From an uncultured Tropicimonas sp. (lineage in GTDB: Bacteria; Pseudomonadota; Alphaproteobacteria; Rhodobacterales; Rhodobacteraceae), in NCBI GenBank assembly GCA_947497945.1, contig CANMIP010000006.1, forward strand, positions 62,001-126,000: 64,000 bases of DNA. Reading direction: 5' to 3'. Within the stretch, counting starts at the first letter, position 1, and every line of letters starts with the position of its first letter. The position numbers were made by a program, and so were the translations under genes. The notes under the pieces were generated by a model, which was not told where the DNA came from, did not search any database, and saw only the letters and a list, made by a program, of their open reading frames with translations. Below, piece by piece: positions 12,019 through 57,949 of the stretch.

Positions 12019-13458
12019 TCACTCGGCGGGGAACCCACCGACGGCCTTGATTTCGAGGAAATCCTCCAACCCGAACGCGCCGCCCTCACGGCCCTTGCCG
12101 GATTGCTTGATGCCACCGAAGGGCGAGGTCTTGGCACGGCTCTTGCCGTTGATCTCGACCATGCCGGCCTTGAGTGCGAAAGCCATGCGGCGCTGGCGTT
12201 CGGGATCCTGGGTCTGGGCGTAGTTGGTCAGGCCGTAGACCGTATCATTGGCGATGGCGACCGCCTCTTCCTCGGTCTCGAAGGGAATGATCGACAGCAC
12301 CGGGCCGAAGATCTCCTCGCGGGCGATTGTCATGTCATTGGTGACATCGGCGAAGACGGTCGGGCGGACGAAATACCCGCGATTCAGCCCGTCGGGCCGC
12401 CCCGGGCCGCCGGCGACGAGCCGCGCGCCTTCCGAGATGCCCTTTTCGATCAGGCCCTGAACCTTGTCCCACTGCATCTGGCTGACCAGCGGGCCGATAT
12501 GGCGGCCATCTTCATGCGCCGAGGCGACGGCGGTCTTCTCGGCCGCTTCGCGCGCGGTTTCGACAGCCTGGTCGTAGATTTCGCGCTGCACCAGCATCCG
12601 CGAGGGCGCGTTGCAGGACTGGCCGGTATTCTGCATCATGTGCCGCACGCCGCGCACCACCGCCTTCTCGTCGGCATCGGCGAAGACCACGTTGGCGCCC
12701 TTGCCGCCAAGTTCGAGGCTGACGCGCTTGAGCGTCTCGGCCGCGGCCTTGGAGATCAGGATGCCGGCGCGGGTCGAGCCGGTGAAGGAAACCATGTCGA
12801 TGCCCGGATGGGCCGAAAGCTGCGAGCCGACGCCCACGCCATCGCCATTGACCATGTTGTAGACACCCGCCGGAACGCCCGCCTCGTCGAGGATCTCGGA
12901 CCAGAGCAGCGAGGAGAGCGGCGCGATCTCGGACGGTTTCAGCACCATGGTGCAGCCGGCCAGAAGCGCCGGGATGACCTTCAGCGCCACCTGGTTCATC
13001 GGCCAGTTCCAGGGCGTGATCATCGCCACCGTGCCGATGGGCTCCAGCACGATGCGATCATTGGGGGAGCTGTCATTCAGCGGGCGAACGAACTCGAAAT
13101 CCTTCATCGCCTCGAGGAAACCCTCGATATGCCAGGAGCCGGCGCCGACCTGGCTGCCGCGCGAGAGGGCAATCGGCGCGCCCATCTCCAGCGTCATCGC
13201 CTGCGCCATTTCCTCGGCGCGGCGGTTGTAGACCTCAAGGATCTTCTCGACCACCGCCACGCGCTCCGCCGGGTCCGTCGCGGCCCAGGCGGGGAAGGCG
13301 GCATTGGCTGCGGCGACGGCGGCATCGGTATCGGCCTGGCTGCCCAGCGAGATCACCGCGACCTCTTCTTCGGTCGAGGGGTCGATGACGGGGAAATCAT
13401 TGGCAACGGCCGGATCAACCCAGGCGCCGTCGATATAGAACTGGCGTTTCTCGATCAT
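12019..13458 (-). CDS. NAD(P)-dependent aldehyde dehydrogenase
   Basis: The 479-residue protein has standard ALDH length. ITPWNWP is the cofactor-contact segment, VSLELGGKG carries the catalytic Glu, NTGQSCNAPSRM carries the nucleophilic Cys, and EEIFGPVLSI and SPFGGIKQSG are the usual C-terminal motifs. It oxidises an aldehyde to the acid in the cytoplasm; the substrate cannot be read from sequence. ATG 13458 follows GGTAGGAAG. It stands alone on the minus strand. Confidence 0.92.
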   Translation of the reverse strand: MIEKRQFYIDGAWVDPAVANDFPVIDPSTEEEVAVISLGSQADTDAAVAAANAAFPAWAATDPAERVAVVEKILEVYNRRAEEMAQAMTLEMGAPIALSRGSQVGAGSWHIEGFLEAMKDFEFVRPLNDSSPNDRIVLEPIGTVAMITPWNWPMNQVALKVIPALLAGCTMVLKPSEIAPLSSLLWSEILDEAGVPAGVYNMVNGDGVGVGSQLSAHPGIDMVSFTGSTRAGILISKAAAETLKRVSLELGGKGANVVFADADEKAVVRGVRHMMQNTGQSCNAPSRMLVQREIYDQAVETAREAAEKTAVASAHEDGRHIGPLVSQMQWDKVQGLIEKGISEGARLVAGGPGRPDGLNRGYFVRPTVFADVTNDMTIAREEIFGPVLSIIPFETEEEAVAIANDTVYGLTNYAQTQDPERQRRMAFALKAGMVEINGKSRAKTSPFGGIKQSGKGREGGAFGLEDFLEIKAVGGFPAE

Positions 13459-13948
13459 GTCGATCTTCCTACCCTTGTTTTCATGGCACAACGGCCTTTT
13501 CGCTTCGTTTTCCCAGGGGCTGCGCAAGGCGCCCAGACCCCGTTTGTCCCGGTCGATCCGCCCGGCGACAGCCCAATGCCAGCGACAGGTTGTCGATGGA
13601 TCGGGCACTCCGGGAAGGGGCGTTTTATCGTTCGAGACTCCGGGCTGCGTGCCAATACAGGCCCGGCTTGCACGACCATTCTTGCCCCCGGGCATGGCCA
13701 TGCCGACAAAGACATCCGATTTCCTGGGCGGCATTGCAAGCCTTGTCGCCAGCCCTGGGCGGGATGACGGTACGGGAGCGGGGCGCGCCGTCTGCGGGCG
13801 GCTCTTCCCGAAGGCTCGGCCGGTCGATGTCGCGCCGGGATTTCGGCAGCCGAAAAAATGCTTTGCGCGCGCGAGGTTGGCCAATTGACATGCCCGGAAT
13901 CCAAGGCGAGTCTCTGCGCCGGGTTTTGGGTATCAGGGCGGACCTTTC
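13459..13948. other. 490-nt divergent intergenic region upstream of ALDH and the acylation cassette
   Basis: I find no supported gene. The plus strand carries a TTGACA at 13885-13890 without a good -10, which may still belong to the five-gene cassette promoter. The rest is GC-rich with no clear repeat. Confidence 0.4.
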
Positions 13949-14599
13949 ATGATTCTATTCGGTGTCAGGTCGCCGCTGGTTGTCGATTGCGAGATCGCGG
14001 CGCAGAGATGCGGCACGCCTTTTCGTTTCGGCGTATCGCTGGATGACGAACATCCGCGCACAATGTTCGACATTGAAATTGTTGACTATCCGGAGCTGGA
14101 CAAGATCGAGCGCTTTCCCGCGCTGCCCTGTGCTTTTTCGCCCAGACGGCGGGAAGAGCTTGCCCGGATCGCGGAAGAGGCCGGCTTCGAACTGGCCGAA
14201 ACGCTGGTTGATCCGACGGCCATCCTGCCGCCCCGGCTGCGCCTCGGCCGCGCGGGGTTCATCAATGCCGGCGTGGTCATCGGCGGGGGTTCGATGTTCG
14301 GCGATGGCGTCCTCGTCAACCGTAGCGCCTCGATCGGCCATCACTGCCTGCTCGAGGACTGGGTCAGCGTCGGGCCGGGCGCGATCCTGTCGGGCAATGT
14401 CCGCGTCGGGCGCAATTCCATGATCGGCGCCGGGGCTATCCTGCAATCCGACATCCGGGTCGGCGAGAATGTTCGGATCGCTGCTGGCAGCCTCGTGCGC
14501 AAGAACGTGCCGGACAATTCCCTCGTTTCGGGCAACCCGGCAAAGACCGTTCGGGCGCGCCCCTTTCCGTCTTCCCTCGAAAGGGCGGGCGGCGAATGA
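13949..14599 (+). CDS. Left-handed beta-helix acyltransferase (PglD/NeuD-like), first gene of acylation cassette
   Basis: The 216-residue protein has an N-terminal region loosely like the nucleotide/sugar-binding domain of NeuD/PglD sugar acetyltransferases (1-75) and then hexapeptide repeats forming a left-handed beta-helix (about 90-200: VVIGGGSMFGDGVLVNRSAS, then GAILSGNVRVGRNSMIGAG). The ending NSLVSGNPAKTVRARP is typical of O/N-acetyltransferases. GHHC supplies the likely catalytic His. Its stop overlaps the next start as ATGA. Context suggests it modifies the acyl unit or the sugar acceptor of the cassette. Confidence 0.8.
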   Translation: MILFGVRSPLVVDCEIAAQRCGTPFRFGVSLDDEHPRTMFDIEIVDYPELDKIERFPALPCAFSPRRREELARIAEEAGFELAETLVDPTAILPPRLRLGRAGFINAGVVIGGGSMFGDGVLVNRSASIGHHCLLEDWVSVGPGAILSGNVRVGRNSMIGAGAILQSDIRVGENVRIAAGSLVRKNVPDNSLVSGNPAKTVRARPFPSSLERAGGE

Positions 14600-16365
14600 G
14601 CACTGGCTTCCACGAACGGCTCTTTGCCGGGTTTGCCGCCGCCGAGAAACGGGACTTCCTCGTGTCGCCGTCCCAGCGGTTGAGTTACCAGGATGCAGCG
14701 CGGGGCATTCGCCGCTGGCTTGCGCTGTTCGACCGGTTCGGGCTCGCCTCCGGAGATCGGATCGTCCTGCGAACCGATCGGGACGATGTTGCGTGCATTG
14801 CCTTCATCGCCGCCCTGGTCGATGGCAAGGTGCCGGTGCTTCTCGAAGGGGGCTGCCCGGATGCGAGGTTCCTCTCCACCGTCCAGCTTGTCGAACCGGC
14901 GCTCGCGATTTCTGACGGGCACCTGCCGGACCTTCCCGGCGCAACGCAGGGCTTCGCGCTCGCCGAAGGGGCCTCCGGACAGGGGTTTCGCTTTCTGCAA
15001 CGGCGCAAGGGCGGTGCCGAGTTCGGGTTGGAATGCGATCCGGCGACAAGGGCGCCGGCGCTTTCCGGCGCCACGAGGCTGGCCTATCTGCTCTTCACCT
15101 CGGGATCGACCGCCGAACCGAGCGGTGTCGAGGTCACGCAGGACAATCTTGCGGCGAATCTCGACACCCTGTCGTGCCTGTTCGACTACGATCCCCAGTC
15201 CCGGATCTTCAATGACATGATCCTCGCCCATGCCGACGGAATGATCCAGGGGCCGATGCTGGCGGCGTGGAACAAGGCGGCGGTGCTGCGCGCCGGCGGT
15301 TTCGAGCTTCAGCATATCGAGGACTGGCTGGCCTGCGTGCGGCGGTTCAGGGCGACGCATGTCCTGTCCGTGCCCACGGTCTGGTCGTTGATCGACAGCT
15401 ATGCCGCCCATGACGATTATTTCGACGGGCCGGAATGCCGCGTGCTCATGACGGTTGCCGCCAAGATGCCGGAGCCGCTCTGGGAGCGGATCGAAAGCCG
15501 TTTCTCGCGTCCGCTCGTCAATCATTACGGGCTGACCGAGACGGTTGCGAGCGCGCTTTACGCCGGACATGCGGAAGAGCTCGGGGCCTGGGGAACGATC
15601 GGGCGACCGCTGGATTGCGAGGCCAGAATCGCGAATGGCGGCGATGAGGGCGAGCTGCAACTGCGGGGTGCCAATGTCTTTTCCGGCTATTGGCGAAACC
15701 CGGAACGGACAGCGCGCAGCTTCACCGAAGATGGCTGGTTCCGGACCGGAGACCTCGCGCGCGCCCGTGACGATGGCAGCTACGAGGTCCTCGGGCGGAT
15801 CAAGTCCGTCATCATGTCGGGCGGGGTGTTGATCCGGCCCGACGAGATCGACGAAGCGATGCTTCGCCACCCGGCCGTTGCGGAAAGCGCTACGGTCGGT
15901 GTGTCCGACAGGTTTTTCGGAGAGGTCGGTGTCACCTGTGTCGTGCTGAACGAGGATCTCGACGAGGCCGAGCTGACCGAGCATCAGCGCCTCTATGTCG
16001 AGCCGCGCAAGGTGTCCAAGCGCATCCTGGCGGTGCCGTCAATTCCGCGGGGACCGTCCGGGAAGGTGACGCTGGACGCGCTTCGCGCCGTGATCGCATC
16101 GCGGACCGATGAACCGGCGGCGGGCGGCGACAGGGTCGTGCTGTCCGACGATGTTCTGGACCTGGCGGCGGGCGTCTTTCGGGTCCCGCGCGACCAGGTT
16201 TCGCTTCGGACAACACCCGACACCCTGAAGGCATGGGACAGCTTCACCCAGTTGAATCTCGTTCTCTCGGTCGAATCCCATTTCGGATGCCGGATCCCGG
16301 CTGCCAGTGTGAGCAAGCTGCGCAGCCTCGCGGATGTCGTGACGGCGGTCGAGGAGCTTTCATGA
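14596..16365 (+). CDS. Adenylation domain - acyl carrier fusion (DltA-DltC-like)
   Basis: The 589-residue protein joins an AMP-forming ligase to a carrier domain. The ligase shows LLFTSGSTAEPSGVEV (167-180, P-loop), VNHYGLTET (308-316), GWFRTGDLAR (380-389), GRIKSVIMSGG (400-410) and the C-terminal catalytic Lys490 in PRGPSGKVTLDAL. The P-loop departs from the usual TGxPKG (here TAEPSG). Residues 512-589 resemble an acyl carrier with the phosphopantetheine Ser549 in WDSFTQLNLV. It would adenylate an unidentified acid and load it on its own carrier arm. Overlaps both neighbours by 4 nt. Confidence 0.87.
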   Translation: MSTGFHERLFAGFAAAEKRDFLVSPSQRLSYQDAARGIRRWLALFDRFGLASGDRIVLRTDRDDVACIAFIAALVDGKVPVLLEGGCPDARFLSTVQLVEPALAISDGHLPDLPGATQGFALAEGASGQGFRFLQRRKGGAEFGLECDPATRAPALSGATRLAYLLFTSGSTAEPSGVEVTQDNLAANLDTLSCLFDYDPQSRIFNDMILAHADGMIQGPMLAAWNKAAVLRAGGFELQHIEDWLACVRRFRATHVLSVPTVWSLIDSYAAHDDYFDGPECRVLMTVAAKMPEPLWERIESRFSRPLVNHYGLTETVASALYAGHAEELGAWGTIGRPLDCEARIANGGDEGELQLRGANVFSGYWRNPERTARSFTEDGWFRTGDLARARDDGSYEVLGRIKSVIMSGGVLIRPDEIDEAMLRHPAVAESATVGVSDRFFGEVGVTCVVLNEDLDEAELTEHQRLYVEPRKVSKRILAVPSIPRGPSGKVTLDALRAVIASRTDEPAAGGDRVVLSDDVLDLAAGVFRVPRDQVSLRTTPDTLKAWDSFTQLNLVLSVESHFGCRIPAASVSKLRSLADVVTAVEELS

Positions 16366-17186
16366 CGCCAAGCCTGCGTGCGGTGTGCCTGGCGTGGATA
16401 TCGGCGCTCGGTCTTGCCGGATTGGTCGCGCTGCTGCTTTGGCAGGCCTGCGAGAGGCGCTTCGCTGCGCGGATCGAGACTGTCGGGACATTGGTCGTGG
16501 GCACCTCGCTTGTGCGCTTCGCCGTGCCGTCAGCCCAAGGCGATGACACGCTGGCGACGCTGGGGCCGCGCGAGTTCCTCCGTCTCGGCTTTCCGGGAGG
16601 GCAGGAGCGCCATGTCCTGCAAGCCGCCTCCGCTGCGGCGGAAGCCGGCGCGGCGGCGATCTTCATCGAAGTCAATCCGATCGTGTCGCGCTTTGCCAAC
16701 CAGTCGCCGGGCTGCGGTCTGCGGGCAGGGATGCGGTATGAACGGTCGGTCCTGATGGCAACCGCGGAAGCCCTGTTCCGCCTCGACGAGGATTTCTGGC
16801 TGCGGGGCGGGGCGCTGCCGGCTTCCCGGGCAGGAAAGGGCGAGGTCACGGAGGAAACGCTCTCCCTGCTATACCCGCTCTCCCTTCCCGGATCCTGTTT
16901 TCCGGACGCGTGGCGCAGGCTAGTCGAAGATCACACAGACACGCGCTTCGCGTTCCTTGCCATGCCGCGCGCGCCGGTAGCCCGGGACCGGATCGGCCGG
17001 GATGCAATGCGCGATTTCCTCGAAGCGTCGGAAGCGTTCGCGGCCGCGACAGGCGCGCCGCTCTTCATTGCCGATCCCGATGGAAGCTGGAGTGCGGCGC
17101 ATTTCCTCGACCAGGCACATCTGAACGAGGCCGGGTCCGAACGCTTCCTGCGAAGCTTCGCGCAGTGGTGGGACGAACAGCCGTGA
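16362..17186 (+). CDS. Membrane-anchored SGNH/GDSL-fold protein (DltD/AlgJ-like)
   Basis: The 274-residue protein has one N-terminal membrane segment (about 8-28) and an extracytoplasmic SGNH-like domain. Ser49 in VVGTSLVRF occupies the block I nucleophile position, and DQAHLN near the C-terminus (Asp250, His253) matches the terminal DxxH. In dlt and alginate-acetylation systems such proteins act with an MBOAT on the outer side of the inner membrane. Start ATG 16362 overlaps the ligase stop (ATGA), and its own stop overlaps the MBOAT start (GTGA). Similarity to DltD is by fold and context, not by confident alignment. Confidence 0.72.
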   Translation: MTPSLRAVCLAWISALGLAGLVALLLWQACERRFAARIETVGTLVVGTSLVRFAVPSAQGDDTLATLGPREFLRLGFPGGQERHVLQAASAAAEAGAAAIFIEVNPIVSRFANQSPGCGLRAGMRYERSVLMATAEALFRLDEDFWLRGGALPASRAGKGEVTEETLSLLYPLSLPGSCFPDAWRRLVEDHTDTRFAFLAMPRAPVARDRIGRDAMRDFLEASEAFAAATGAPLFIADPDGSWSAAHFLDQAHLNEAGSERFLRSFAQWWDEQP

Positions 17187-18253
17187 GCGTACTCGACTAC
17201 CATGTCTTCCTCCTGCTCTCACTTGTGTGCGTGCCGATATCCTGGTCGGTGCCGCGCGCCCATGCCTTTGACGCGGTGGCCGGTTGGACCGCGCTCTGCC
17301 TTGTCGTGCTCTCCCCGGCAACGGCCCTGTGGCTGACGGCCATCGTCCTCGGCTTGCCGAAGCTCCTGGCCGGCAGAGATGCAAGGCGCGGGCCACGCGC
17401 CGTGCTGGCCATCCTGTTGCTGACAGTGGGACTGATAGTCTCGCGTGCCCTGCCGGGATGGGCCTGGATCGGCGGCGCGTTCTTCACGTTGCGGGCCATG
17501 CATGTCGTGATCGAATGGTGGATGCGCCGCCTGTCCGCGCCGAGCCTGCGCGAGAGCCTGCATTATTTCCTCTTCCTTCCCGTTCTCGCGGCCGGCCCGA
17601 TCCATCGCCTGCCGCATTTCCAGCACCAGCTCCGCCGCCGCCGATGGGACCCCCAAATGTTCTTCACCGGGGCCGAGCGGATCCTGCTCGGGCTTGTCTG
17701 GTTCTACGTGGTGGCGAGTTTCGTGCTCGTCCAGGTCGACGCAAGGCTGGCCTGGTACCTGTCGGACGTGGCCGATTTCTGGTCCGTCTGGGCCCGGGCC
17801 GCGGTCAGTTGGCTGGAGCTGTTCTTCGCCTTCTCGGGCACCACGCACCTGGCATTGGGCATCTCGCTGATGATGGGATTGAAGCTGGAGGAGAATTTCG
17901 ACCGCCCCTGGGCGGCACGCAACCTGGTGGATTTCTGGACCCGCTGGCACATGACGTTGACGCATTGGGTCCGCGACTATGCATTCCGGCCGCTGACGGC
18001 GCTGACGCGAAGCCCGGTGGTCGGGCTGCTCGGGGCGATGCTTGTCGTCGGGCTGTGGCACGAATTCTCGCTCTACTACGTGTTGTGGGCGATGTGGCAA
18101 TCGCTTGGCATCCTGCTGTCGCAGCTCGTCAATCGCAGGATCGGCGCGCGTTGGCGCCGGTCCTGGATCACTGCACCGTTCGGCTTCCTGGCGATCCTCG
18201 CCTGGCTCTCTGCAGCACGTCCCGTGATCGAACTCATGGGGGTCGGCCATTGA
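17183..18253 (+). CDS. MBOAT family membrane O-acyltransferase (DltB-like)
   Basis: The 356-residue polytopic protein shows MBOAT hallmarks: AAGPIHRLPHF (136-146), NLVDFWTRWHMTLTHWVRDY (247-266) and VVGLWHEFSLYYVLW with the invariant His293. MBOAT enzymes of this class take an acyl group from a cytoplasmic carrier thioester and transfer it through the membrane to an outside acceptor. GTG 17183 is chosen because the upstream stop overlaps as GTGA and the first membrane segment begins at residue 7. The last codon pair overlaps the microprotein start (TTGA). Confidence 0.88.
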   Translation: MSVLDYHVFLLLSLVCVPISWSVPRAHAFDAVAGWTALCLVVLSPATALWLTAIVLGLPKLLAGRDARRGPRAVLAILLLTVGLIVSRALPGWAWIGGAFFTLRAMHVVIEWWMRRLSAPSLRESLHYFLFLPVLAAGPIHRLPHFQHQLRRRRWDPQMFFTGAERILLGLVWFYVVASFVLVQVDARLAWYLSDVADFWSVWARAAVSWLELFFAFSGTTHLALGISLMMGLKLEENFDRPWAARNLVDFWTRWHMTLTHWVRDYAFRPLTALTRSPVVGLLGAMLVVGLWHEFSLYYVLWAMWQSLGILLSQLVNRRIGARWRRSWITAPFGFLAILAWLSAARPVIELMGVGH

Positions 18254-18399
18254 CACCGCTCTGGTCCTTCTATGAGCGGTTGCTGCCCGGCAGGCTCGTG
18301 TGGCCGGCTGTGACGCTGACCTACATGATCGCCATTCTGCTCTTGCTGCTGTTCGCGCGCGTACCGGTCGAGCAGATCATCTATATCGACCTGAACTGA
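18250..18399 (+). CDS. DltX-like membrane microprotein with C-terminal tyrosine motif
   Basis: The 49-residue product starts with TTG at 18250, overlapping the MBOAT stop. It has a basic, aromatic N-terminus (LWSFYERLLPGRLVWP), one hydrophobic helix (about 19-36) and the C-terminus EQIIYIDLN. The ending fits the pattern hydrophobic-hydrophobic-Tyr-x-x-hydrophobic of DltX in Gram-positive dlt operons (FIYNEF type), where the tyrosine is proposed as the acyl acceptor between MBOAT and polymer; here that is Tyr45. Size, topology, position and C-terminus all agree; homology itself is not proven. It would be missed by usual length cut-offs. Confidence 0.72.
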   Translation: MTPLWSFYERLLPGRLVWPAVTLTYMIAILLLLLFARVPVEQIIYIDLN

Positions 18400-18514: not shown

Positions 18515-18551
18515 ACAAGTCGCGAACGATACACTCACAGGGAGCCATCTT

Positions 18552-19205
18552 ATGGGCCTTCGCATCAATGACATTGTCCCCAACCTGAAATTCGAGACCA
18601 GCCAGGGCGAGATCCAGTTCCACGACTGGATCGGCGACAGCTGGGCGATCCTCTTCTCGCATCCGAAGGATTTTACCCCGGTCTGCACGACCGAGTTCGG
18701 CGCCGTCGCCCAGCTCGCCGAGGAATGGGAGAAGCGCAACACCAAGGTGATCGGCCTCTCCGTCGACGGGATCGCGGAGCACAAGGAATGGATCGCCGAT
18801 ATCGAGAAATACGCCGAAGCGCCGGTGCCCTTCCCGATCATCGCCGACGAGGGCCTGGAAGCCTCCAAGGCCTTCGACATGCTTCCCGCCGATGCCTACC
18901 TGCCCGATGGCCGCACCGCCGCCAACAGCGCCTCGGTCCGCTCGGTCTTCATCATCAGCCCGGACAAGAAGCTGCAGCTTTCCATGACCTACCCGATGTC
19001 GGTTGGCCGCAATTTCGCCGAGGTGATGCGGGCGCTCGACGCGCTGCAGGCAACCTTCGGGACGCCGATCGCCACGCCGGCCAACTGGACGATGGGCCAG
19101 GACGTGATCATTGCGCTCTCGCTGGATGACGACGCGGCCCGGGAGAAATTCGGCGAATTCGACGCGGTCCTGCCCTATCTGCGCAAGACCAGGTCGCCGG
19201 TCTGA
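18552..19205 (+). CDS. 1-Cys peroxiredoxin (Prx6 family)
   Basis: The 217-residue protein matches Prx6-type peroxiredoxins in length and motifs: FSHPKDFTPVCTTEFG carries the peroxidatic cysteine, and the C-terminal extension (TPANWTMGQDVIIALSLDDD) is characteristic of this subgroup. It reduces hydrogen peroxide and organic hydroperoxides in the cytoplasm using a small thiol or a redoxin partner. ATG 18552 follows GGGAGCC. The Irr-like palindrome upstream suggests iron- or haem-linked control. A GNRA-loop terminator follows. Confidence 0.93.
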   Translation: MGLRINDIVPNLKFETSQGEIQFHDWIGDSWAILFSHPKDFTPVCTTEFGAVAQLAEEWEKRNTKVIGLSVDGIAEHKEWIADIEKYAEAPVPFPIIADEGLEASKAFDMLPADAYLPDGRTAANSASVRSVFIISPDKKLQLSMTYPMSVGRNFAEVMRALDALQATFGTPIATPANWTMGQDVIIALSLDDDAAREKFGEFDAVLPYLRKTRSPV

Positions 19206-57868: not shown

Positions 57869-57870
57869 TC

Positions 57871-57949
57871 CTGGTATCCTTCCAGATATCTGCCTCTCGT
57901 TGGGGAGAGGTGTCCCGCCGCCGCTGATATGGGGCGGGCGGGCATCTGG
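57871..57949 (-). ncRNA. serC leader (putative cis-regulatory RNA)
   Basis: Directly upstream of serC the minus strand can form three stems: CCAGAT with ATCTGG closing the element, a GC stem CCCGCCCGCC with GGCGGCGGG (one bulge) and CCTCTC with GAGAGG around a 6-nt loop. The CTGG of the closing stem can instead pair with CCAG at 57874-57871, trapping the AAGGA ribosome site. Position and final-stem overlap agree with the serC leader described for alphaproteobacteria. Fold drawn by eye. Confidence 0.6.

What the first reader, a model, noticed from the sequence alone, without database searches (positions are those of the whole stretch)
13949..18399. dlt-like acyl-transfer cassette in an alphaproteobacterium
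Five consecutive genes encode a beta-helix acyltransferase, an adenylation-carrier fusion, an SGNH protein, an MBOAT and a tyrosine-ended microprotein. This reproduces the functional set DltA, DltC, DltD, DltB and DltX that esterifies teichoic acids in Gram-positives, but in a Gram-negative that has no teichoic acid. The system probably activates an unknown acid and transfers it to an envelope polysaccharide or other outer-surface polymer. The ligase-carrier fusion, the appended PglD-like enzyme and the gene order differ from known dlt operons.
Basis: partly seen in the sequence, partly recalled or inferred. Interest (0 to 1): 0.9.

Follow-up and report, generated by a model that had tools for sequence, protein, structure and literature searches.

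The report
Mobile Dlt-like envelope acylation cassette
A compact five-gene cassette in a Gram-negative bacterium has the parts of the machine that Gram-positive bacteria use to attach D-alanine to their cell walls, including a tiny membrane protein that seems to hand the acyl group on through a tyrosine, although a recent paper says that other systems of this sort lack that part and the carrier protein.

Summary
Confirmed: five overlapping ORFs (13949-18399) encode a PglD/NeuD-like hexapeptide acyltransferase, an AMP-ligase fused to a carrier domain, an SGNH-like protein, a tail-less MBOAT and a 49-residue membrane microprotein ending IIYIDLN. MBOAT His293, carrier Ser549 and the microprotein Tyr are invariant in 8 of 8. 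In 8 of 8 same-genus genomes the flanking genes adjoin directly, so the cassette is an insertion. No part passes a Dlt family cut-off; the ligase is nearest to malonyl-CoA synthetase. In a 72-row tree the MBOATs found beside a separate microprotein, DltB included, lie on one side of a well supported branch (with one fused-tail row), away from AlgI-type MBOATs. A 2025 paper says non-Dlt MBOAT/SGNH systems lack carrier and microprotein; these loci contradict that. Best reading: Dlt-like, carrier-dependent, Tyr-shuttled acylation of an unknown envelope acceptor, probably with an amino acid. Chemistry, substrate and acceptor are inferred; no structure could be predicted.

The parts
13949..14599 (+). 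PglD/NeuD-like left-handed beta-helix acyltransferase (216 aa); role in the cassette unknown
   Evidence: Pfam Hexapep 57.1 bits; NCBIfam TIGR03570 126.4 bits, under its cut-off of 160.8; PDB best 4m98 pilin glycosylation protein, then VioB and perosamine N-acetyltransferase; found in 6 of 6 close loci, not detected by tblastn in L077 and L078; H131 (catalytic role recalled from PglD) invariant in 5 of 5 aligned
14596..16365 (+). AMP-forming ligase fused to a C-terminal carrier domain (589 aa); carrier Ser549 in WDSF; D214, K490
   Evidence: Pfam AMP-binding 141.5 bits, PP-binding 16.2 bits under cut-off; PDB best malonyl-CoA synthetase 4fuq; D214, K490 and Ser549 invariant in 8 of 8 family members
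16362..17186 (+). SGNH-like protein (274 aa) with a hydrophobic N-terminus: GTS (Ser49), DQAHL (His253)
   Evidence: Ser49 and His253 invariant in 8 of 8 aligned, Asp of DxxH in 6 of 8; no Pfam hit for the window protein; profile match to the L077 gene at 96.4% probability; fold not confirmed
17183..18253 (+). MBOAT without C-terminal Tyr tail (356 aa, GTG start); His256 and His293
   Evidence: PF03062 70.5 bits; PDB best DltB 6bug E 8.7e-28; His256 and His293 invariant in 8 of 8; ends ELMGVGH, no FxYxxF
18250..18399 (+). DltX-like membrane microprotein (49 aa, TTG start) ending VEQIIYIDLN
   Evidence: Tyr in 8 of 8 family loci, Tyr and Asp in 6 of 6 close loci; hydrophobic stretch at residues 16-34; this kind of ORF found only next to MBOAT genes in a control of 336 ORFs
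12019..13458 (-). Left flank, not part of the cassette: aldehyde dehydrogenase gene (start at MIEKRQFY inferred from where relatives begin to match)
   Evidence: tblastn beside the peroxiredoxin gene in 8 of 8 same-genus genomes; start position
18552..19205 (+). Right flank, not part of the cassette: 1-Cys peroxiredoxin gene
   Evidence: Pfam AhpC-TSA and 1-cysPrx_C; directly beside the aldehyde dehydrogenase gene in 8 of 8 same-genus genomes

Best explanation
A horizontally acquired operon for Dlt-like acylation of an envelope component. Proposed steps: the ligase domain adenylates a small acid, probably an amino acid, and loads it on the phosphopantetheine of its own carrier domain (Ser549). 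The tail-less MBOAT takes the acyl group from the carrier at the cytoplasmic face and, using His293, moves it to Tyr45 of the microprotein at the periplasmic face. The microprotein hands it to Ser49 of the membrane-anchored SGNH-like protein, which esterifies an acceptor outside the cytoplasmic membrane. The PglD-like enzyme may tailor the acyl group or prepare the acceptor. Shown here by sequence: gene set, order, conserved residues, hydrophobic microprotein with a C-terminal Tyr, missing MBOAT tail, insertion. Inferred: every chemical step, topology, the amino-acid substrate (about 55%), the acceptor, the role of the PglD-like enzyme.
For: Five genes in the same order in 6 loci. MBOAT His293 and His256, carrier Ser549 and ligase D214 and microprotein Tyr invariant in 8 of 8 family members. 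In the 72-row tree the 20 MBOATs of the window, upstream-microprotein, FkbH, L023 and DltB groups, plus L050 and L052, lie on one side of a branch with support 100/99, or 97.6/100 on 344 core columns. Microproteins of this type were found only beside MBOAT genes: 12 rows, 11 distinct, of 336 ORFs of 300 aa or more; the two annotated DltX proteins tested satisfy the same criteria. A carrier was found in 14 of 15 split loci and 3 of 11 fused-tail loci; with six further loci 16 of 19 and 4 of 12, L042 (no tail, no microprotein, no carrier found) left apart. D214 is invariant where malonyl-CoA synthetase has His in the alignment. The acyl-Tyr shuttle of Dlt and the fused FxYxxF tail of other MBOATs are described in PMC12148441 (passages read). 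The cassette sits between genes that adjoin in 8 of 8 same-genus genomes.
Against: No part passes a Dlt family cut-off. The SGNH protein shows no detectable similarity to DltD, and the DxxH Asp is missing in L036 and L074. The microprotein motif is IIYIDL, not FxYxxF, and NPYLDL or IRYIDP in two relatives. The PglD-like gene has no counterpart in Dlt. The frame that puts D214 on the amino-binding Asp of DltA is my reading: MAFFT places DltA's Asp one column off. A ketopantoate-reductase-like gene follows the cassette in 3 of 6 close loci, which could point to another kind of acid. Carrier and separate microprotein do not always go together: L081 and the short L080 show a microprotein but no carrier; L047, L049 and L052 show a carrier beside a fused-tail MBOAT. 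No acceptor gene travels with the cassette. No structure could be predicted.
Confidence: 0.74

Rival explanations
1. An acyl-CoA-dependent MBOAT/SGNH O-acetylation system of the AlgI/PatA type; the ligase-carrier gene is a bystander.
For: The MBOAT belongs to PF03062 and matches AlgI-type proteins of relatives at about 24-43% identity.
Against: It lacks the fused FxYxxF tail that 48 of the 50 rows on the AlgI side of the tree match by pattern. A ligase-carrier gene accompanies it in 8 of 8 family loci. A separate microprotein supplies the Tyr motif.
Confidence: 0.08
2. The cassette makes or decorates a secreted small molecule or a lipid (siderophore, lipopeptide, aminolipid); the SGNH-like protein acylates that molecule, not a polymer.
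For: In L036 the genes upstream look like a TonB receptor with binding protein, permease and ATPase (my reading of ORFs, no domain search). The carrier of the distant locus L038 is nearest to an ornithine-lipid carrier model, under its cut-off (38.8 bits, cut-off 130). No polymer genes travel with the cassette.
Against: I saw no condensation, ketosynthase or export gene shared by the close loci, though their neighbours were read by eye only. The transporter-like genes are beside one of six loci. By PMC12148441 (passages) MBOAT/SGNH pairs are typical of envelope polymer acylation.
Confidence: 0.13
3. A true dlt operon taken over from a Gram-positive donor that D-alanylates a phosphate polymer.
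For: Same functional set of parts; the MBOAT's best solved relative is DltB.
Against: DltB forms its own clade apart from the window family. The ligase is 25% identical to DltA and nearer to malonyl-CoA synthetase. TIGR04091 and PF12459 are not met. GC is about 0.65, like the surroundings.
Confidence: 0.05

Closest known systems
Dlt pathway (DltA, B, C, D, X) for D-alanylation of teichoic acids, Gram-positive
   Same: Ligase and carrier, MBOAT without fused tail, separate membrane microprotein with a Tyr near its C-terminus, SGNH-type protein; one operon
   Different: Ligase and carrier are fused and the ligase is nearer to malonyl-CoA synthetase; an extra PglD-like gene; order LbH, ligase-carrier, SGNH, MBOAT, microprotein; motif IIYIDL instead of FxYxxF (FIYNEF in the two DltX proteins); SGNH protein not recognisably DltD; Gram-negative host
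PatA/PatB, AlgI/AlgJ/AlgX and cellulose-type MBOAT/SGNH O-acetylation
   Same: MBOAT + SGNH pair with an acyl-Tyr shuttle
   Different: There the Tyr motif is fused to the MBOAT and the donor is acyl-CoA without a carrier (PMC12148441, passages read); here the motif is on a separate protein and a carrier is encoded
PglD/NeuD/VioB/perosamine N-acetyltransferases
   Same: The first gene shares the left-handed beta-helix and the His aligned (by recall) with the catalytic one
   Different: 126.4 bits against a cut-off of 160.8 for TIGR03570; the N-terminus (MILFGVRSPLVVDYEE type) lacks the Gly-rich nucleotide-sugar motif (motif recalled)
dlt-like loci reported in some Gram-negatives such as Bordetella (recalled; my searches listed no such paper among the rows shown)
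   Same: Dlt-type genes in a Gram-negative
   Different: Not compared; whether they carry a DltX-type microprotein is not known to me

Membership tests
Dlt pathway | DltA: D-Ala-carrier ligase | tested here: not met
   25% identity to one lactobacillar DltA; NCBIfam best hit malonyl-CoA synthase, DltA not among the 25 shown of 115; PDB best malonyl-CoA synthetase
Dlt pathway | DltC: free carrier protein | tested here: not met
   carrier is fused to the ligase in 8 of 8 family members; PP-binding 16.2 bits, cut-off 20.8
Dlt pathway | DltB by TIGR04091 (375 bits) | tested here: not met
   131.5 bits in the genome search, 133.1 for the protein; the host's AlgI-like paralogue 160.7
Dlt pathway | DltX by PF12459 (25 bits) | tested here: not met
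   no hit for the window microprotein; the genome search gives only two 13-bit matches on another contig; of seven microproteins scanned only L055 gives a match, 14.2 bits over nearly the whole model
Dlt pathway | DltD | tested here: not met
   profile comparison with one DltD: probability 0.4, only 18 columns around the GxS motif
Dlt pathway | Acceptor is teichoic acid, acyl group is D-Ala | not testable with these tools
   needs biochemistry
Carrier-dependent, split-shuttle MBOAT/SGNH acylation (mechanistic class) | MBOAT with catalytic His and no fused Tyr tail | tested here: met
Carrier-dependent, split-shuttle MBOAT/SGNH acylation (mechanistic class) | Separate membrane microprotein with a C-terminal Tyr motif | tested here: met
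   8 of 8 family loci; control; annotated DltX satisfy the same criteria
Carrier-dependent, split-shuttle MBOAT/SGNH acylation (mechanistic class) | Carrier with phosphopantetheine Ser in the operon | tested here: met
   Ser549 in 8 of 8
Carrier-dependent, split-shuttle MBOAT/SGNH acylation (mechanistic class) | SGNH protein with Ser-His(-Asp) | tested here: inconclusive
   Ser and His 8 of 8, Asp 6 of 8; no family hit for the window protein and the fold could not be predicted
AlgI/PatA-type MBOAT | FxYxxF fused at the MBOAT C-terminus | tested here: not met
   window MBOAT ends ELMGVGH
NeuD/PglD/VioB acetyltransferase | TIGR03570 cut-off | tested here: not met
   126.4 bits, cut-off 160.8

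The most novel reading that the evidence does not exclude
Carrier-dependent MBOAT acylation with a separate Tyr-shuttle microprotein is not a Gram-positive speciality but a broad bacterial branch in which Dlt is one twig. In this branch the loading module is exchangeable: a ligase-carrier fusion (window family), an FkbH-like protein plus free carrier that would deliver D-glyceryl (Nitrospinota, Desulfobacteraceae), or ligase, carrier and PLP decarboxylase (Verrucomicrobia). Gram-negatives would thus decorate envelope polymers with several acyl groups other than acetate.
Probability: 0.5. Interest if true: 0.86.

Novelty: new variant of a known kind. Interest (0 to 1): 0.75.

Why it matters
A 2025 paper on PatAB (PMC12148441; abstract and passages read) says that MBOAT/SGNH pathways other than Dlt lack both a carrier protein and a DltX-like microprotein. 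The window and its relatives encode both, in several phyla, so the statement looks too narrow. If the cassette works as proposed, Gram-negative bacteria can carry acyl groups other than acetate, perhaps amino acids that change surface charge, across the inner membrane onto an envelope component with a five-gene kit that moves between species. The kit is small enough to be tested in one laboratory strain.

Tried and rejected
Structure prediction of the ligase-carrier and SGNH-like proteins was not possible, so there is no fold evidence for the SGNH-like protein and no model of the substrate pocket. Dlt parts from a Latilactobacillus operon were compared directly: DltD not detectable, DltX 7.5% probability, DltA 25% identity, DltB clearly related (99.3%).

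A Gram-positive origin was considered and rejected on the tree and on GC. 'DltB-like by HMM' was rejected as an argument because the host's AlgI-like paralogue scores higher against the DltB model and because DltB is the only bacterial MBOAT among the four PDB hits.

The ketopantoate-reductase-like sixth gene (L035, L036, L074) was followed as a substrate clue: ApbA 26 bits for L035 and 11.7 bits (under cut-off) for L036, weak, and no copy detected in the window's genome (where the tool warns that an empty answer shows nothing). A short inverted repeat spanning the cassette (13626-13639 / 18518-18531) is no better than others in the same list. The promoter and terminator scans gave one match each, both inside the ligase gene and no more than chance for the terminator. 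Of 72,556 plasmid records one holds close relatives. A weak SGNH match in G311 (E 6.9e-4, 84 residues) was not pursued.

The idea that a carrier goes strictly with a separate microprotein was tested and fails as a strict rule (see full report).

Literature: the searches showed no report of a DltX-type microprotein in a Gram-negative, but several of these lists were capped and I saw listings and abstracts' first lines only. Of the four papers opened I read the outline and passages of PMC12148441 and passages of PMC11279074 and PMC12423673; the 2023 Nature Microbiology Dlt paper is not held.

Rows left out of the tree: repeats of a locus already in (L001, L032, L033, L057, L059, L060, L071, L075, L076) and L015, whose MBOAT runs into a stretch of N and whose apparent microprotein is probably its own broken-off tail.


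Full report
WHAT IS THERE. Five plus-strand ORFs, each overlapping the next by four bases, lie at 13949-18399: a PglD/NeuD-like left-handed beta-helix acyltransferase, an AMP-forming ligase with a C-terminal carrier domain, a 274-aa protein with a hydrophobic N-terminus and SGNH-type motifs, a 356-aa MBOAT (GTG start), and a 49-aa microprotein (TTG start). Family hits are clear for the ligase and MBOAT, good but under the NeuD cut-off for the beta-helix, sub-threshold for the carrier (16.2 bits, cut-off 20.8) and absent for the SGNH and microprotein genes.

IT IS CONSERVED. The MBOAT, SGNH and ligase proteins find a Sulfitobacter pontiacus plasmid (MBOAT 55%). The MBOAT also finds Alteraurantiacibacter buctensis (L036) and an alphaproteobacterial MAG (L037). 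Genome searches add G148 (class, 385 genomes, SGNH query; a second weak match in G311 was not pursued), G474 (family, 394, E limit 1e-40), G799 (phylum, 398, E limit 1e-45) and G1251 (order, 292, E limit 1e-45). In some searches only 5 or 6 candidate places per genome were scored, so misses are possible, and the samples overlap. In six loci (window, L035, L036, L037, L056 = G148, L074 = G474) all five genes stand in the same order. In L077 (G799) no PglD-like gene was detected and the other four keep their order. In L078 (G1251) the SGNH-like gene lies upstream of the ligase and a sulfotransferase gene sits between ligase and MBOAT. Each sampled group gave one strong orthologue besides the window, or none (146 relatives), so the cassette is rare and patchy.

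KEY RESIDUES. MBOAT His256 and His293 8 of 8; SGNH Ser and His 8 of 8, Asp of DxxH 6 of 8 (missing in L036 and L074). Carrier Ser549 and ligase D214 8 of 8. Microprotein Tyr 8 of 8: IIYIDL (window, L035), IIYVDV (L036), MIYLDM (L037), NPYLDL (L056), IRYIDP (L074), FIYWDN (L077), FRYGRL (L078). All eight have a hydrophobic 19-residue stretch, mean Kyte-Doolittle 1.91 to 3.08. H131 of the first gene is invariant in 5 of 5 aligned.

THE TAIL RULE. Of 49 MBOAT rows with the tail pattern, 43 are 440-525 aa long (range 386-639 by first start codon), and most end with F[IL]YFxF. MBOATs of the window family (350-382 aa) lack that tail and have the Tyr motif on a separate microprotein. PMC12148441 (passages) describes this difference between Dlt and other MBOAT/SGNH systems, and says that the others lack both microprotein and carrier. 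The fetched loci contradict that. Besides the window family, microproteins stand downstream of the MBOAT in Nitrospinota and Desulfobacteraceae MAGs (ending FIYAGF, an exact FxYxxF; L053-L055), and upstream of it in L061/L080, L062/L079 and the Verrucomicrobial L038 (FKYQGF, FRYQNF, FRYQGF). Looser candidates are L050 (39 aa, VAYQQF; an SGNH-sized gene lies between it and the MBOAT) and L023/L081 (AYAEF). Control: of 336 ORFs of 300 aa or more on both strands of 27 sources, 12 rows (11 distinct microproteins) had a 40-60 aa hydrophobic ORF with the motif near the stop, and all 11 adjoin an MBOAT gene. Limits: the sources were chosen for their MBOATs, many of the 336 ORFs are surely not genes, and the scan missed L074, L081 and L050 as well as the dltX of L087, which does not follow a long ORF. 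The annotated DltX of L087 and L089 (both ending FIYNEF) satisfy the same length, hydropathy and motif criteria.

TREE. With 72 MBOAT rows one branch (100/99) separates 22 rows from 50. The 22 are the window family (8), the upstream-microprotein group (3), the FkbH group (3), L023, L050, L052 and five DltB. Of these, 16 non-DltB rows have a microprotein (two of them the looser candidates L023 and L050); among the five DltB loci dltX is annotated in L087 and L089, not in the stretches of L058 and L088, and L086 carries no annotation; L052 has its own tail (VVYRAF). The 50 comprise 48 rows with the tail pattern, L049 (FIYAQY) and L042 (no tail, no microprotein found). On 344 core columns, tail excluded, the 22-row set has support 97.6/100; the 20 rows without L050 and L052 only 10.1/58. 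The window family (8), the upstream group (3) and DltB (5) are each one side of a branch in both trees; the window family joined with the upstream group is supported (98/93) but not recovered. The programme warns of several long branches (L042, L023, L049, L052, L050, L078 among others) and of joins between long branches, so fine placement inside the branch is unsure.

CARRIER. With a small profile trained on eight carriers, 14 of 15 split loci (L081 is the miss) and 3 of 11 fused-tail loci have a carrier. Six of the 15 gave training sequences; without them 8 of 9 against 3 of 11, L054 being close kin of L053. Adding six loci left out: L055 and the DltB locus L086 have one, the 4.2-kb contig L080 and the small-plasmid DltB locus L088 do not; among fused-tail loci L047 has one, directly before its MBOAT and after a ligase gene; L042, which has neither tail nor microprotein, has none. 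In all 16 of 19 split against 4 of 12 fused-tail. In L047, L049 and L052 the carrier is right beside a fused-tail MBOAT. So carriers are commoner in split loci but not exclusive to them, and the published statement that non-Dlt pathways lack carriers is contradicted on both sides of the tree. The fused-tail loci of the genome searches, held with 1.5 kb of flank only, were not scanned.

WHAT IS LOADED. The ligase is nearest to malonyl- and oxalyl-CoA synthetases; the amino-acid adenylation model TIGR01733 is ninth (154.5 bits, cut-off 317.4). The family has an invariant Asp (D214) where malonyl-CoA synthetase has His in the alignment. I read it as the amino-binding Asp of DltA and PheA (PheA recalled): in L087 DltA a Gly follows 13 residues after the Asp, as in 7 of 8 family members; the window itself has Lys there, and L058 DltA has Ala. 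MAFFT places DltA's Asp one column off, with a gap later. The same Asp-containing stretch is seen in the ligases of L038 and L080. This favours an amino acid and does not prove it. Against it, a ketopantoate-reductase-like gene follows the cassette in three of six close loci.

IT MOVES. In 8 of 8 same-genus genomes the aldehyde dehydrogenase and peroxiredoxin genes that flank the cassette lie side by side, with no match to cassette proteins between them; in the same genus one search finds only MBOATs of about 30% identity (3 of 8) or none. GC is like the neighbourhood. The Sulfitobacter copy is on a plasmid with glycosyltransferase and sulfotransferase genes and transposases nearby; around the other loci I saw, by eye, no shared neighbours beyond the reductase-like gene. 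A kit that moves alone suggests an acceptor common to many hosts; this is inference.

VERDICT. On sequence evidence it works like Dlt; it is not a member of the Dlt families. I file it as a new variant of a known kind: a carrier-dependent, split-shuttle MBOAT/SGNH acylation cassette in Gram-negatives with its own loading enzyme. The broader claim, that Dlt is one twig of a large branch with exchangeable loading modules, is the most novel reading, at about even odds.

Noticed in passing
L053 6332-10986, L054 6209-10992, L055 74-3200: Nitrospinota and Desulfobacteraceae MAGs: FkbH-like protein (PF21211, 31.1 bits, tested in L053 only), free carrier, tail-less MBOAT, 50-51 aa microprotein ending FIYAGF, and an SGNH-like gene read by eye. 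A possible D-glyceryl version of the Dlt scheme; in L055 only the end of the FkbH-like gene is held.
   Followed up: partly
L038 7263-14359: Verrucomicrobial MAG: SGNH-like gene (by eye), microprotein ending FRYQGF, MBOAT, PLP decarboxylase of the Orn/DAP/Arg type (124 bits), sulfotransferase-like gene (by eye), carrier nearest to the ornithine-lipid carrier model (under cut-off), AMP ligase on the other strand.
   Followed up: partly
L079 (G663) and L080 (G544): Two genomes of the window's own family have MBOAT loci with the microprotein upstream (FRYQNF, FKYQGF). L080 also has an AMP ligase and SGNH-like gene before it (by eye), L079 a carrier and a sulfotransferase-like gene (by eye).
   Followed up: partly
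L035 17223-18320, L036 10250-11320, L074 8616-9659 (-): Ketopantoate-reductase-like gene (41-45% identity in the pairs compared) directly after the microprotein in three of six cassettes; not detected in the window's genome.
   Followed up: partly
L047 208-2727, L049 8552-10284, L052 8417-10083: Fused-tail MBOATs with a carrier gene right beside them: carrier use and a fused Tyr tail can coexist. L052 lies inside the split branch of the tree, L047 and L049 outside it.
   Followed up: partly
window 57869-57920 (-): serC leader RNA (RF00517), 71 bits; unrelated to the finding.
   Followed up: no
window 13626-13639 and 18518-18531: 14-nt imperfect inverted repeat on the two sides of the inserted cassette; probably chance.
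   Followed up: no
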